From Fodinicurvata sp. EGI_FJ10296 (GTDB taxonomy: Bacteria; Pseudomonadota; Alphaproteobacteria; DSM-16000; Inquilinaceae), in NCBI RefSeq assembly GCF_040712075.1, contig NZ_JBFCVL010000008.1, positions 62,001 through 126,000 of the forward strand: 64,000 bases of DNA, given 5' to 3'. The notes beneath the pieces are model-generated. The model was not told where the DNA came from and did not search any database. It saw nothing but the letters and a program-made list of their open reading frames with translations. Below are positions 22,819 to 58,360 of this stretch, in pieces. Numbering within the stretch: position 1 is the stretch's first letter; each line of letters begins with the position of its first letter. Made by a program: the position numbers and the translations under genes.

Positions 22819-22910
22819 GGCCACACAAAGCCATCGGCCACGAATGTCGATTCGCGAGTCATTACTGCCCCCTGCCGGAACCCCTCGTCCGGCGCAATGG
22901 TCCTGGGTCG

Positions 22911-23069
22911 CGGCAGGTCTCCTGGCTTGCGGTTCGAACGTGGCGCTGCCGCCTTCCCGGCTCGATCGGCCAGTGGCGTTGGCAGCGGCACTCACCGCTC
23001 ACAGTTGCGAGGGCAGCCACGGCATTGTCCCCTGATGGGTAATCCGCACCGTGTTCCCTATTAATCCGT
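22911..23069 (-). ncRNA. Cobalamin (adenosylcobalamin) riboswitch
   Basis: On the minus strand the conserved landmarks occur in order: AATAGGGAA near 23056-23064; GGGGAC followed by GCTGCCCTCGCAACTGTGAG, close to the consensus GCTGCCCCCGCAACTGTAAG; the GCCACTG core; CGGGAAGGC; and the B12 box AGCCAGGAGACCTGCC ending at about 22912. The RNA lies 115 bases upstream of the first gene of the ferredoxin/BtuFCD-like operon. Binding of B12 should lower expression, probably through the hairpin over the ribosome site. Confidence 0.96.
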
Positions 23070-23222
23070 CCCAATGGCGGAACCGCGACAGGCCCAGACT
23101 TACCTGAGAGCGGTTCTGCGGGCAAGCGCCGCGTTCGCCGGCATCCACCTTCGGGGTGGCCGCGCAATCGGGCATTGCAATAAGGCAAAGGATTCGCATA
23201 TTAGTTTAATTTGAGGAAAATT

Positions 23223-52722: not shown

Positions 52723-55700
52723 ATGACCCATCCCGCGGCGGCGCGACGCCGGACCATCCTTGTAACGGCGACAATGCTCCTTCTGCCGGGCGTCGTGTTG
52801 GCGCAAGACCGGTTCTGCGATCCGGTCCCCATCCCGGAGATCGCCGGATGCTCGCCCGCCGCCATGCTCGACGCGCTCAACGGCGACCAGATCATCACCG
52901 GGCCCCGTTCGCCGCAGGTGGTATTCGCCGAAGGGCAGACGCGGCCCGGCCAGGGCTATCTCGACATTTCCGGACTGGTGGGCGAGTTTGGCTCCGTCTG
53001 CGCTCAACCGGTCTCCGCCCTGACGACGGACGGCCTGATCATGTCGGGCGCACTGCGCGACATCTCACCTCGGGATCTGCTGGGCGACGGCGACGTGACC
53101 GGCGGCATCGGAACGGTCATGGAATTCATGAGCCGAATGTCGGCGGGCGAAGCGCCGTCGGGCAACATGGACGCCGATATGCTCAATGTCCTGATCCCGC
53201 CGGATTCCGATATGCGCGATGTCGTGTTCGAACTCTCCAGCCCGAATGCCTTCACGCTGGAAAGCGGGGTCCTGGGCAATCCGATATGGATCGAACACAG
53301 CGGCGCCACCGGGTGGAGTCCCCGCTCGGCCAGTCACTTCGTGGTCCAGCTTCCGGACACCACGCCTGCCGATCTGCAGCCCGGCGAAGTTTACCGCGCC
53401 ATCGCCACCGCCCCACGCGACGGTGATGGCGCATCCGGAGCGATGCCGACGCTGGCGGCGTTCTACACGACCTGGGACGGCAGGTTCCGACGTTTCAGCC
53501 AGCCGGACCAGGCCGCCCCGCCGATGGCCGTGCCGTTTCTCAGGGACATTCAGCGCAATCTGGAACTTCCTGACGGAATCGGCGGTCTGGACATCGCGCA
53601 GATGGCAATCTCCGGCGAGGGCCAGGCCTTCGCCGGCGAAATCACCATGGTCGGCGGCCGGCTGAACGGCACCGTAACGATCGATGAGATCACCGATACC
53701 ACGGTTTACGGACGGCTAGAGCTTTCCGGCGACGCCTGGGCCGAGACCGATACGCGGGAATTCACCTATGACGACGAGGGCCAACTCGATGGCAGCCGGC
53801 GGGTCGATATCTCGCAACAGGATGCATCGCTGACGGTCTACGGCGGGTTTGCGGCCCCCAATCAGGGCAGCATGACCCATATCGGCCACAGTGCCGTCGC
53901 GATCGACGGACGCGGCGGCGACCGCCCGCCGGTTCTCGGCGTCGAAGCGAATTTTCCCGCCTCCGGGGCGAAGAACCTCGACTTCGACGACCCGCGCCTT
54001 GAGGTCGTTTTCGACCGCGCCATCGACCCGGCGAGTATCGGCCCGGGGACGGCCTATCTCGAATACCGCAGCGCCAGCGGCGGCATGGCGCGGGTCGATG
54101 TCACCGCCGACGTTGACGACGATACGCTGCACTTCCATCCGGTTGATGCGCTGCCGCCCGGCGCCTGGTACCGCCTGATCGTCGAAGGCGGCCAGACGGG
54201 GCCGGCAGGCCGTGACGGCGCGGTATTGCCGGGCCCTTTCGGGCTGACATTCGCGACGGTCCCGGACGAGTTCGAGATCACGCCCGTCGTTATTCAGGTC
54301 GCGCGCGACGCGCCGCTGGTCGCCGGCAAGACCACCCTGACGCGGCTTTATATTGACTGGGAACGCCCGGAAGGCACCGTCCACGAATCCTGGCACGTCC
54401 GCGACATTCCGGCCAATGCATGGGTCACGGACGAACGTGAGGGGCAGCTTTACGAGACGAAAGAGGACGTGCCCGTGCCGAACGAGGATCTGGCCACCCC
54501 CGATCAGCAGCGGGTCGCGAACAACACCGTGAACTTCTTCGGCTGGGACCCGATGCTGCGCGAAACGCGCGAAGTGCTGGGCTTCATCGAGCCTCTCGAT
54601 CCGTGCGACCAACCGCTGGGCGAAGAAGACGGCAAGACCGGTGTGACCTGGACGGATCTGCAGCGCGACCTCACCTTCGATTATTACATGATGCGGGTTG
54701 GCCCCTGGGCGGACGGCATTTCGCCCGCCGCACGGGGTGCGCTGCGATCGGTCGCGCACAACGCCGCTCGTTTTACCCAGCAGACCTTTCCGGTGACCGG
54801 CGTCTCCGGGCGCTTTGCCGGCGACTATACCCCGACACGCGACTGGCAGGAACGGTATGGCGACAACCTTCCCGACAGCTATTCCGGCGACGCCGAACTC
54901 ATGTTGATGAGTGAGCTTCACGATGCGGTCGCCCAGTTCAGCAACGCTGACATGATCGTGGCGTTCCTGCCCACCGAAGTCAGCCAGGGCGGGTCCTCTT
55001 ACGGGCCGGTACCCTTGGCGGACGGGGGCAACGAGTTCCGCTGGTCCCAGCCGGTCCGATTCCGAACACCCACTGTTGCCATGCAAGGCGTGGCGCGCGG
55101 CGCCATGGTGCCCGCCATCACTCATGAATTCGGTCATGGCTTCGGATTACGGCACGTCCCGGACGTCGCGAATGTGGGCGAACGACAGGCAGAGTGCGAC
55201 TCGGGCCGGACCGAAATGGCGGGCATCGAAGGATTTCGCCTGTCGTTGGACGGCAGTGGCGGCAACAACAAGTCGTTCGAGGAAGGCAACGGTGAAACGA
55301 CCTGGGGGCTGTTGCCGTTGATGTATCCATGCGCCGAGGAATATTCGAAGCACTTCATCCTGCGTGACTATTATTTGCAGCTGATTGATGGCATTCGCAC
55401 ACATGCGGCCGCAGAAACCCCGGAGAATACCGGTCCAAGCTATGCGCAGTCTCTGCAATCGATACTGGTCGGCGGCCCGGCTCAAGCTGCGGACGGGTGG
55501 TCCGACGGGGGTCCACAGCAATTCGTCGTCGTCGGAACCCTCGGCGAAACGACGGCGACCGCCAGCATAGACCGGATGGCGCCAGCCCTGCGGCGCTTCC
55601 GCGATACCGGGCCCGAGGGCGACTTCACGCTGATCGCGCGCGACCGAAGCGGCAGCATCCTCGCCCAACGCCCGCTCGGCGCCGACATGACGGGTGAGAA

Positions 55701-56718
55701 CGGAAGTCCGTTCTTCTCGGTCATCTCAACGTCGCGGCCGCCTTTCAGCCTCGAAATCCGTCACGGCGAAAAGACGGTCGCCCAACGGCGCCGATCGCTG
55801 TCGCCGCCCCAAATCCACGGCTTTCGGCTGGCGGACAGCGGCGGCGATATTGCGCGGCTGCGCTGGGAGGCTGAGGACAGCGACGACGATCCGTTGCGCT
55901 ATACCGTGCTGTTCCGCAGCGCAGAGGATGACGGCTGGCGCGTGGTGGCCGTTGCTGGGGACGGCGCCACTGCCGCCGTTCACCGCGCCGCCCTGCCGGC
56001 CGGACCCGACCCGACGTTTCGGCTGATCGCCAGTGACGGAATGGATCAGGCGACCGCCGACATTTCCGCCGCAGCCGCCGCGCGGCCTCCGGAATTGTTA
56101 CCAGAGGCCGACACTGCTGAAGACGGGTCGGACGCCGCCGGCGAAGCCGATTTTGTGCCCGACCCCGGCCCGCCACGCCTCGGCGGCGGCTTGGCCGAGA
56201 CGGATCCCACGAGCGAGGCGGACGCCGCAGACGACACGCGAGAAACCGGGAACGTTGATGCGCCGGAGCCGCGCTCCGGCAGTGCAGCCGGCGGTTCCAA
56301 TCTTGGCACGATCGCTTTCGGTGGCGAGAGCCACGAATTCGCCCTGCGCGCATGCACCCGGACGACAGTCGGTCCCGACACCCGGCTCATCGACATCTCC
56401 GGCGCGACGGCACCTGAGGGCCAGACGCGGCTGGTCGTCAGCGCTACCATCGCCGACTTGCCCGGCGGCGGCAATCAGGTGGTCGAGGCCCGCCGGGTCG
56501 ATGCCGGCGGCGATGAAATCGCGGTCTACGTCGCGATGCGCACGAACCAGGGCGGCGAATGGGTGACCGGCCTGGGCGATCCCGCCAATGGCCCGCTTCT
56601 GACCGTCGATGGCACGACGATCAGCGGGTCGGGCGAGTTCCTCGACCGCACCGGCATGCCGGAATCCTTGGGAACCGGCCGGTTCGAAGCGCATTGCCAG
56701 TCCTTTTCGGATGGATGA
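52723..56718 (+). CDS. Large secreted metzincin-like zinc metalloprotease
   Basis: A 1331-residue exported protein. The signal peptide is about residues 1-27 (MTHPAAARRRTILVT, ending VLAQ). Residues ~390-520 resemble a bacterial Ig-like Big_5 domain (LDFDDPRLEVVFDRAIDP). The zinc site is H801-E-F-G-H805-x5-H811 in HEFGHGFGLRH, the extended HExxHxxGxxH of metzincins, with the Met-turn at M867 (PLMYP). A Fn3-like segment follows at about 1030-1110, then an acidic linker (1120-1200) and a C-terminal beta-rich domain. Bilobal family assignment is not possible; it may be undescribed. No barrel or LPXTG anchor; release by Sec and another pathway is unknown. Confidence 0.82.
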   Translation: MTHPAAARRRTILVTATMLLLPGVVLAQDRFCDPVPIPEIAGCSPAAMLDALNGDQIITGPRSPQVVFAEGQTRPGQGYLDISGLVGEFGSVCAQPVSALTTDGLIMSGALRDISPRDLLGDGDVTGGIGTVMEFMSRMSAGEAPSGNMDADMLNVLIPPDSDMRDVVFELSSPNAFTLESGVLGNPIWIEHSGATGWSPRSASHFVVQLPDTTPADLQPGEVYRAIATAPRDGDGASGAMPTLAAFYTTWDGRFRRFSQPDQAAPPMAVPFLRDIQRNLELPDGIGGLDIAQMAISGEGQAFAGEITMVGGRLNGTVTIDEITDTTVYGRLELSGDAWAETDTREFTYDDEGQLDGSRRVDISQQDASLTVYGGFAAPNQGSMTHIGHSAVAIDGRGGDRPPVLGVEANFPASGAKNLDFDDPRLEVVFDRAIDPASIGPGTAYLEYRSASGGMARVDVTADVDDDTLHFHPVDALPPGAWYRLIVEGGQTGPAGRDGAVLPGPFGLTFATVPDEFEITPVVIQVARDAPLVAGKTTLTRLYIDWERPEGTVHESWHVRDIPANAWVTDEREGQLYETKEDVPVPNEDLATPDQQRVANNTVNFFGWDPMLRETREVLGFIEPLDPCDQPLGEEDGKTGVTWTDLQRDLTFDYYMMRVGPWADGISPAARGALRSVAHNAARFTQQTFPVTGVSGRFAGDYTPTRDWQERYGDNLPDSYSGDAELMLMSELHDAVAQFSNADMIVAFLPTEVSQGGSSYGPVPLADGGNEFRWSQPVRFRTPTVAMQGVARGAMVPAITHEFGHGFGLRHVPDVANVGERQAECDSGRTEMAGIEGFRLSLDGSGGNNKSFEEGNGETTWGLLPLMYPCAEEYSKHFILRDYYLQLIDGIRTHAAAETPENTGPSYAQSLQSILVGGPAQAADGWSDGGPQQFVVVGTLGETTATASIDRMAPALRRFRDTGPEGDFTLIARDRSGSILAQRPLGADMTGENGSPFFSVISTSRPPFSLEIRHGEKTVAQRRRSLSPPQIHGFRLADSGGDIARLRWEAEDSDDDPLRYTVLFRSAEDDGWRVVAVAGDGATAAVHRAALPAGPDPTFRLIASDGMDQATADISAAAAARPPELLPEADTAEDGSDAAGEADFVPDPGPPRLGGGLAETDPTSEADAADDTRETGNVDAPEPRSGSAAGGSNLGTIAFGGESHEFALRACTRTTVGPDTRLIDISGATAPEGQTRLVVSATIADLPGGGNQVVEARRVDAGGDEIAVYVAMRTNQGGEWVTGLGDPANGPLLTVDGTTISGSGEFLDRTGMPESLGTGRFEAHCQSFSDG

Positions 56719-56746: not shown

Positions 56747-58360
56747 TCACCGCTCGCTGAGGGCGCGGCGCAGCCGCCTTAGCAGCGCGTTTCGAGCCCG
56801 TTCATCCGCCAAGCGATCCAGCGCGTCGTGGATATCGATGGCAAGCTGCGCATAGTCGTTGTGCCAATCCTCGCGCCCCATCGCTTCTTTGGGCAGCCTT
56901 GGATGCGGTACGGCAGGCGGGGCCGGAGGGGCACGCGGCGCCTCTCGCGGTCCGGCCAGGTCAACCACGGAATCAAGCTCGGGACAGGAAATCCGGTCGA
57001 TCGCCAGCCCTGCCGCCCCCAGACGCTCGACCATGGCGCTGCGGGCATCGTCTTCGCCATGGACCAGAAAAATCGTGCCGCCGACCGGCAGCCGGCCGGT
57101 TACCCAGTCGATCAATTCCGCTGAATCAGCATGGCCGCTATAGCCGTCGAGCGTGCGGATCCGGGCGGCGACGGCGGTTTCCTCGCCATGGATGCGCACG
57201 ACCTTGCGGCCTTCCTGCAACAAGCGCCCCATCGTGCCAACCGCCTGAAATCCGGTCAGCAACACCGTGCAGTCCGAGCGCCACAAATGCGCCTTCAGGT
57301 GATGGCGGATGCGCCCGGCGTCGCACATGCCGCTGCCGGCCATGATGATGGCGCCGCCCCTGATCCGGCCGATCGCCTTGCTTTGTTCCACCGTCTCGGT
57401 GATTTTCAGGTTGCGCAAGGTGAACGGATCGACCCCGCGGGGCATGTTTTCCAGCTCGTGGGCGTGTTTGGCAAAGACGGCCGTCGCCCGTGCGGCCAAC
57501 GGCGAATCAAGGAACACTGGAATCGATTTCAGGGCACCGGACACGAACAGGGCAGCAAGATCGACCAGAATTTCCTGGGTACGCTCCACAGCAAAGGCCG
57601 GAATGAGCAGATTGCCACCTCGATCGATGGCCGTTTGCACCTCGTCCCGCAGCACCTCGCGCCGCTCGGCAACGTCAAGACGCACCCGGTCCCGCGCGCC
57701 ATAGGTGGACTCGCAGATCAGATGATCGATCCCCGACGGCGCCGCCGGGTCGGGGTGAAACAGCTTGTGGCCGGGACCAATATCGCCGGAGAACAGCAAC
57801 CGCGTCCGGTCTCCGCCCGTCGTGCCCGCCTCCTCGACCGCGAGTTCGACCGAGGCTGAACCCAGCATATGCCCGGCATTCCAGAATCGCGCCGAAACGC
57901 CGGCTCCCGGCTCGATCCAGGCGTCATAGTCGACGGGCCGCAACCGGTCCAGCGTATGGTCGGCATCCTCGGCCGAATAGATTGGCGTCACCGGCTCCTG
58001 GCCGCGCTGCCGCCTGCGGCGATTCAGGCGTTCGACCTCCGAGGCCTGAACATTGGCTGAGTCGGGCAGAACGAATTGCAGCAGATCGCAGGTCGCGGTC
58101 GTGGCGTAAATAGGCCCCTTGAATCCGGCGGCGACCAGTTTGGGCAGCAGCCCGGCGTGGTCGATATGGGCATGCGTCAGCAGAACGAATTCCAGCGCAG
58201 CGGGGTCGAAGGGAAACCCCTGATAATTCAGTTCCTTAACTGTTTTCGTGCCCTGAAACATGCCGCAGTCGATGAGAAACGCACCGGCCGGCGTGGCGAG
58301 GCGAAAGCAAGATCCGGTGACGGTGCCGGCCGCCCCGTAGAACCCCAATTCGACCGTCAC
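56747..58360 (-). CDS. MBL-fold beta-CASP RNA nuclease
   Basis: A 537-residue metallo-beta-lactamase-fold protein. The metal motif is H63-A-H65-I-D67-H68 (LTHAHIDHAGLL); further ligands are in WNAGHMLGSAS and FSGDIGPG. The beta-CASP region contains LLIPAFAVERTQEI (motif A), FLDSPLAARATAV, IMAGSGMCDAGRIRHHL (motif B) and LDGYSGHADSAEL (motif C). This arrangement matches YSH1/CPSF73-like ribonucleases. A C-terminal helical extension after ~ residue 460 is rich in Pro/Arg. The start is GTG at 58358-58360. Function: RNA processing or decay, cytosolic. Confidence 0.93.
   Translation of the reverse strand: MTVELGFYGAAGTVTGSCFRLATPAGAFLIDCGMFQGTKTVKELNYQGFPFDPAALEFVLLTHAHIDHAGLLPKLVAAGFKGPIYATTATCDLLQFVLPDSANVQASEVERLNRRRRQRGQEPVTPIYSAEDADHTLDRLRPVDYDAWIEPGAGVSARFWNAGHMLGSASVELAVEEAGTTGGDRTRLLFSGDIGPGHKLFHPDPAAPSGIDHLICESTYGARDRVRLDVAERREVLRDEVQTAIDRGGNLLIPAFAVERTQEILVDLAALFVSGALKSIPVFLDSPLAARATAVFAKHAHELENMPRGVDPFTLRNLKITETVEQSKAIGRIRGGAIIMAGSGMCDAGRIRHHLKAHLWRSDCTVLLTGFQAVGTMGRLLQEGRKVVRIHGEETAVAARIRTLDGYSGHADSAELIDWVTGRLPVGGTIFLVHGEDDARSAMVERLGAAGLAIDRISCPELDSVVDLAGPREAPRAPPAPPAVPHPRLPKEAMGREDWHNDYAQLAIDIHDALDRLADERARNALLRRLRRALSER

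What the first reader, a model, noticed from the sequence alone, without database searches (positions are those of the whole stretch)
52723..56718. 1331-aa secreted metzincin-like protease of unclear family
Extended zinc motif HEFGHGFGLRH, Met-turn and several beta-domains form an unusual architecture. A domain resembling a bacterial Ig fold lies before the catalytic part, and a long acidic linker after it.
Basis: partly seen in the sequence, partly recalled or inferred. Interest (0 to 1): 0.62.

Follow-up and report, generated by a model that had tools for sequence, protein, structure and literature searches.

The report
Unlisted family of exported zinc proteases
This gene encodes a large exported zinc protease belonging to a rare, unnamed bacterial family that shares its core fold with snake-venom proteases and with a bacterial mucus-cutting enzyme, and its host carries six old, distinct copies.

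Summary
Window 52723-56718 (+) is one intact 1331-aa gene with a signal peptide (by eye), a Pfam Big_5 Ig domain (407-512), a zinc motif HEFGHGFGLRH (801-811), a Met-turn (LMYP, 866-869), more beta domains and an acidic linker (about 1122-1191). AlphaFold2 models put an adamalysin-like metzincin core at about 644-898. The only listed PDB match that also covers the beta-sandwich in front of it is StcE (MEROPS M66). No member whose cut-offs were shown reaches a Pfam cut-off for the catalytic part, and NCBIfam finds nothing for the window protein. I read it as a new metzincin family with its own signature: HExxHxx[GASW]LxH, then R-(10)-KSxxxGN, then [LVM]MxP. The family is rare (2 of 385 class genomes, 2 of 398 phylum genomes, both counting this one) but spread over Alpha- and Gammaproteobacteria, Gemmatimonadota and Acidobacteriota. 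The host has six copies in several old lineages. In 17 of 24 testable loci a small, probably exported partner gene lies directly upstream; the window copy has none. The genome shows no general type II secretion system, so how the protein crosses the outer membrane is open. Substrate unknown; no paper on the family found in my searches.

The parts
52723..56718 (+). whole gene, 1331-aa exported metzincin (residues 1-1331 plus stop)
   Evidence: ORF; family profile matches its catalytic part in G000:C8
52723..52803 (+). signal peptide, residues 1-27, probable cut after VVLA
   Evidence: read by eye; no predictor available
52804..53922 (+). N-terminal region 28-400, no family match; conserved with Fodinicurvata, two Roseovarius, Roseospira and a Rhodobacteraceae isolate
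   Evidence: alignment A6, 32-55% identity to the window protein; Pfam 0 families
53941..54258 (+). Big_5 bacterial Ig-like domain, residues 407-512
   Evidence: 29.5 bits, cut-off 23.6; listed for 9 of 9 full-length members at E up to 1; fold like CopC/PcoC/SbsC
54271..54657 (+). second beta-sandwich directly before the catalytic core, residues about 517-645
   Evidence: models; among listed catalytic matches covered by StcE only
54658..55437 (+). metzincin catalytic domain, residues about 646-905
55123..55155 (+). zinc-binding motif HEFGHGFGLRH, residues 801-811
55225..55290 (+). family signature IEGFRLSLDGSGGNNKSFEEGN, residues 835-856, between the third His and the Met-turn
   Evidence: R839, K850, S851, G855, N856 in 26 of 26
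55318..55329 (+). Met-turn LMYP, residues 866-869, followed by Cys870
   Evidence: Cys870 goes with a Cys in the preceding loop in 11 of 11 members that have it
55516..55791 (+). C-terminal beta-sandwich, residues about 932-1023
   Evidence: model 1 secondary structure
55795..56088 (+). FnIII-like domain, residues 1025-1122
   Evidence: Z 9-11 with FnIII and cytokine-receptor domains
56086..56295 (+). acidic disordered linker, residues about 1122-1191
   Evidence: pLDDT under 50; 25% D+E over 1120-1190
56293..56715 (+). C-terminal beta domain with two cysteines (1211, 1325)
   Evidence: no Pfam match

Best explanation
A Sec-exported zinc endopeptidase, the window's member of an unlisted metzincin family. 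Shown by sequence: invariant zinc ligands, Met-turn, family signature, Big_5 domain. Shown by prediction: an adamalysin-like catalytic core behind a beta-sandwich, arranged as in StcE. Inferred: the three His hold zinc and Glu802 activates water to cut peptide bonds of a protein outside the cytoplasm (periplasm, cell surface or medium); the flanking Ig/FnIII-type domains and the N-terminal region bind and place a structured substrate, and the acidic linker spaces the last domain. In most relatives a small exported partner, encoded directly upstream, probably folds, tethers or restrains the enzyme; the window copy does without such a neighbour.
For: Zn ligands 26 of 26, Met 25 of 26, R/KS/GN signature 26 of 26. 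Fold: Foldseek prob 1.00 to adamalysins and ADAMs; VIA Z 12.6-12.0 over 175-188 residues; StcE Z 13.3 over 305 residues spanning protein 517-1089 and Z 11.2 over 296; entry 6o38, titled a chaperone-substrate complex (CpaA-CpaB, recalled), is third in Foldseek. Kept as separate lineages: six copies in G000 on different branches. Upstream partner in 17 of 24 testable loci, several sharing 1-4 bases with the protease gene.
Against: No activity, substrate or zinc has been shown. The models rest on 16 sequences; mean pLDDT 71.8 and 75.7, with residues 757-791 (before the zinc helix) under 50. The Gly of the motif is not invariant (21 of 26; Ala, Trp or Ser otherwise). The genome has no GspG match and only one sub-cut-off secretin, so release to the medium lacks the type II route of CpaA and StcE. 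The partner idea does not apply to the window locus itself.
Confidence: 0.72

Rival explanations
1. It is a far-diverged O-glycoprotease of the StcE (M66) or CpaA (M72) kind: the beta-sandwich and Ig modules read sugars next to the cut bond on glycoproteins.
For: StcE is the only listed PDB chain that covers both the beta-sandwich and the core; a CpaA-type entry appears in Foldseek; both known enzymes combine Ig-like domains with a metzincin core (PMC7542363, passages); the partner gene recalls CpaB.
Against: Pfam M66 below cut-off in every member shown, matching mostly the zinc helix; NCBIfam metallo_CpaA weak, 2 of 26 members, best E 0.14; no type II secretion genes in G000; no host-glycoprotein context evident for these mostly saline free-living bacteria (judged by name).
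Confidence: 0.2
2. It belongs to the bacterial reprolysin-like branch of M12B and is ordinary except for its extra domains.
For: Best Pfam match Reprolysin_5, 25.3 bits against 27; adamalysin fold.
Against: Below cut-off in all members listed with cut-offs; most matches cover only the zinc helix and its neighbourhood; a private signature R..KSxxxGN and an extra beta-sandwich are constant.
Confidence: 0.12
3. The enzyme and its upstream neighbour form an offence-and-protection pair used against other cells, with the neighbour as inhibitor or immunity protein.
For: Sparse, partly plasmid-borne, multi-copy distribution; closely placed small partner, with a lipobox by eye in three; a Listeria metzincin is paired with a TIMP-like lipoprotein (PMC8235301, passages).
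Against: No toxin-delivery gene noticed next to the copies; the window, Fodinicurvata_a and five other loci lack the partner.
Confidence: 0.1
4. A dead enzyme kept as an adhesin or surface-structure protein.
For: Many Ig-type domains, with S-layer protein SbsC among the fold matches of the Ig part.
Against: All catalytic residues invariant in 26 of 26 aligned members.
Confidence: 0.04

Closest known systems
StcE, MEROPS M66 (PDB 3ujz)
   Same: Beta-sandwich directly before an adamalysin-like metzincin core; match covers residues 517-1089 (Z 13.3, 305 residues, rmsd 4.4, 12% identity)
   Different: Pfam M66 cut-off not reached; Big_5 is outside the aligned range and the N-terminal region was not modelled; no general type II secretion system in the host, whereas StcE leaves by one (PMC7542363, passages)
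CpaA, MEROPS M72 (PDB 6o38, complex with its chaperone; identity of the entry recalled)
   Same: Exported metzincin with several Ig-like domains and a chaperone encoded next to it (PMC7542363, passages); Foldseek rank 3
   Different: NCBIfam CpaA model not matched by the window protein; catalytic domain C-terminal in CpaA, central here; window copy has no neighbour partner
Adamalysins and ADAM/ADAMTS/TACE, MEROPS M12B
   Same: Catalytic fold, Z about 11-12.6
   Different: Below Pfam Reprolysin cut-offs; insertion with R..KSxxxGN before the Met-turn
Listeria Mtz-Tim pair (PMC8235301, passages)
   Same: Bacterial metzincin gene next to a small lipoprotein partner
   Different: Gram-positive, partner downstream there; no sequence comparison was made here

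Membership tests
Metzincin clan MA(M) | HExxHxxGxxH/D zinc motif | tested here: met
   Window protein exact; three His and Glu 26 of 26, Gly 21 of 26
Metzincin clan MA(M) | Met-turn after the third ligand | tested here: met
   25 of 26; the exception is a broken reading frame
Metzincin clan MA(M) | Metzincin fold | tested here: met
   Predicted model only: VIA Z 12.6 to adamalysin-type chains
M66 (StcE, Pfam PF10462) | Pfam model at or above its cut-off (20.6) | tested here: not met
   Not listed for the window protein at E up to 1; listed for 6 of the 10 members scanned singly, 11.2-13.7 bits; for the remaining members bit scores were not shown, best E overall 0.012
M66 (StcE, Pfam PF10462) | Beta-sandwich plus core arrangement | tested here: met
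   Predicted model
M72 (CpaA) | NCBIfam metallo_CpaA model | tested here: not met
   Nothing for the window protein at E up to 1; 2 of 26 members, best E 0.14
M12B (Reprolysin) | Pfam Reprolysin_5 at or above 27 bits | tested here: not met
   Window protein 25.3; listed for 6 of the 10 members scanned singly, at most 23.9 bits
M12B (Reprolysin) | MEROPS peptidase-unit similarity | not testable with these tools
   MEROPS is not held
O-glycoproteases (function) | Cuts beside O-glycans | not testable with these tools
   Needs an assay

The most novel reading that the evidence does not exclude
A new metzincin family forms a transferable two-gene module: an exported multi-domain protease plus one of at least two unrelated small exported partners that fit or restrain it. 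Some lineages, such as the window's, have escaped the partner by carrying their own regulatory N-terminal region.
Probability: 0.25. Interest if true: 0.68.

Novelty: new variant of a known kind. Interest (0 to 1): 0.45.

Why it matters
Protease families with no model stay invisible in annotation: the three plasmid relatives are called 'Ig-like domain-containing protein' or 'hypothetical protein'. A defined signature and a 26-member alignment let the family be found and tested. The closely placed partner genes offer a case for how bacteria hold dangerous exported proteases in check, and the StcE-like arrangement makes glycoprotein cutting directly testable in enzymes from salt-loving bacteria.

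Tried and rejected
Phage or virus origin: no match in phages or viral contigs. Defence gene: PADLOC none. Partner in trans for the window copy: a profile of the upstream family finds in G000 only the tandem pair beside copy C1b. Homology of the partner with the window's N-terminal region: hhalign probability 0.3%. Whole-model Foldseek on 932 residues gave mainly multi-Ig sugar hydrolases with TM-scores near 0.1 and was not used. PDB profile search: best archaemetzincin, E 5.6e-4, but only over the zinc helix. Promoter and terminator scans gave nothing. Papers: searches listed no description of this family; that is a statement about those searches and an open-licence library only. Families not listed by the fold searches are not thereby excluded.

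Full report
Observation. The ORF at 52723..56718 (+) encodes 1331 aa from an ATG. The zinc motif HEFGHGFGLRH starts at nt 55123 and is the only HExxHxxGxxH in six frames of the 64-kb window. Pfam gives Big_5 at 407-512 above its cut-off, and Reprolysin_5 and Reprolysin_3 below theirs; NCBIfam gives nothing. Cysteines lie at 32, 43, 93, 628, 825, 870, 1211 and 1325. The first 27 residues look like a signal peptide (my reading).

Surroundings. The gene stands alone: upstream, on the other strand, a peroxiredoxin (AhpC/TSA) and an ArsR-type regulator; downstream, on the other strand, a beta-CASP metallo-beta-lactamase protein.

Relatives in the same genome. With all 26 first-look candidates scored, G000 has six matches at E up to 1e-6: the window copy on C8 and five paralogues on contigs C1 (two), C3, C7 and C10. 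The first search, with the single window protein, found these and no match in 60 other genomes, 16 of them of the same family.

Relatives elsewhere. Three plasmids carry members: Croceibacterium, Roseinatronobacter and Qingshengfaniella. A scan of genome contigs gave 16 loci: Fodinicurvata, a Rhodobacteraceae isolate and a Rhodobacteraceae bin, Paracoccus, two Roseovarius, Roseospira, Aquibaculum, Sedimentitalea, Pontibaca, Halomonas, Marinicella, two Gemmatimonadota bins (one Longimicrobiales) and two Acidobacteriota bins. Two scans of viral contigs gave none. Profile searches found members in 2 of 385 genomes of the class and 2 of 398 of the phylum; both pairs are G000 and G173, and at most the four best candidates per genome were scored there. 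In G173's family 3 of 12 genomes have members. G173 is probably Aquibaculum arenosum, since its contig 1 has the same length. Many of the named organisms come from saline or alkaline places, judging by names and source notes.

Conservation. In the 26-row catalytic alignment (realigned): H801, E802, H805, H811, R839, K850, S851, G855, N856 and P869 are in 26 of 26; Met867 in 25 of 26, the exception being the Qingshengfaniella copy whose frame breaks just before it; Gly808 in 21 of 26, otherwise Ala (2), Trp (2) or Ser (1). Eleven members have Cys at the position of Cys870, and all eleven have a Cys in the loop after the third His; of the 13 others whose loop was counted, four do; two rows were not counted because the search pattern missed their Met-turn. 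I infer a disulfide 825-870 that ties the loop to the Met-turn.

Fold. The second model (517-905, mean pLDDT 75.7, pTM 0.80) gave adamalysins Z 12.6-12.0, ADAM and TACE Z about 11-12, and StcE Z 11.2 over 296 residues from end to end; Foldseek gave a venom metalloproteinase, ADAM33 and 6o38 (CpaA-CpaB, recalled) at the top. Model numbers were shifted by 399 and 516 to give protein numbers. The loop at 757-791 is unreliable.

Family membership. Ten members scanned singly stay below every Pfam metzincin cut-off, most matches covering only the zinc helix. For the remaining members the tool showed only the best E-value per family: Reprolysin_5 2e-5 (the window itself), M10 6.3e-4, M6 0.008, M66 0.012; NCBIfam's best were an M6 domain model at 8.3e-5 and archaemetzincin at 0.0032, so a hit over cut-off in one of those members is not strictly excluded. 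The family is metzincin by motif, Met-turn and predicted fold, and is not M66, M72 or M12B by the models available. Structurally it resembles StcE and CpaA as far as the core is concerned.

Lineages. The maximum-likelihood tree of 26 catalytic domains pairs the window copy with Fodinicurvata (100/100); puts C3 with Roseospira and Roseovarius (96/99), C1b with Aquibaculum C24 (99/96), and C10 at the base of that larger group (97/98); C1a and C7 group with weaker support (84/77). The six copies are thus not a recent burst.

Partners. Of 27 loci compared, three begin less than 400 bases before the protease and cannot be judged. Of the other 24, 13 have a gene of one family directly upstream (181-439 aa as called) and four have a gene of a second family (226-236 aa). 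Where both starts are clear, the distance runs from a 4-base overlap (both Gemmatimonadota bins, the Rhodobacteraceae isolate, Roseovarius confluentis) to 95 bases. The first family has signal peptides by eye, with a lipobox in Croceibacterium and both Gemmatimonadota copies. Neither family matched Pfam above a cut-off. The seven loci without a partner are the window, Fodinicurvata_a, C1a, C7, C10, Marinicella and an Acidobacteriota bin. CpaB, encoded next to CpaA, is a membrane-bound chaperone whose tail blocks the CpaA active site (PMC7542363, passages), and Listeria pairs a metzincin with a TIMP-like lipoprotein (PMC8235301, passages). The analogy is mine.

Export. GspG has no match in G000 and GspD only one, at 129 bits against a cut-off of 351; 11 of the 17 member genomes searched have no GspG match. 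The route past the outer membrane, if any, is unknown.

Verdict. Function beyond zinc endopeptidase is inference.

Noticed in passing
window 22895-23102 (-): Cobalamin riboswitch, 123.6 bits; the gene it controls was not examined.
   Followed up: no
L016:3820-5850 and similar genes in six loci (component 8): Genes of one similarity group, with a VWA domain in the one scanned, lie within the fetched flanks of 6 of 27 protease loci from several branches.
   Followed up: partly
L015:5856-6614 and four similar loci (component 10): A 252-287-aa exported-looking protein with an SH3b-like stretch (by eye) sits before the partner gene in 5 of 27 loci, the plasmid-type branch; no Pfam match for the one scanned.
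   Followed up: partly
L013:5335-6582: The partner of copy C1b is a tandem: two halves match the partner profile.
   Followed up: partly
L017:7278-9560, L032:6432-9263, L042: Three relatives have interrupted reading frames, so the gene may be decaying or misassembled there.
   Followed up: no
L073, in G397 contig C7: The Fodinicurvata genome has a partner-family gene on a different contig from its two proteases.
   Followed up: no
window 56747-58360 (-): Downstream neighbour is a beta-CASP, RMMBL-type metallo-beta-lactamase protein.
   Followed up: no
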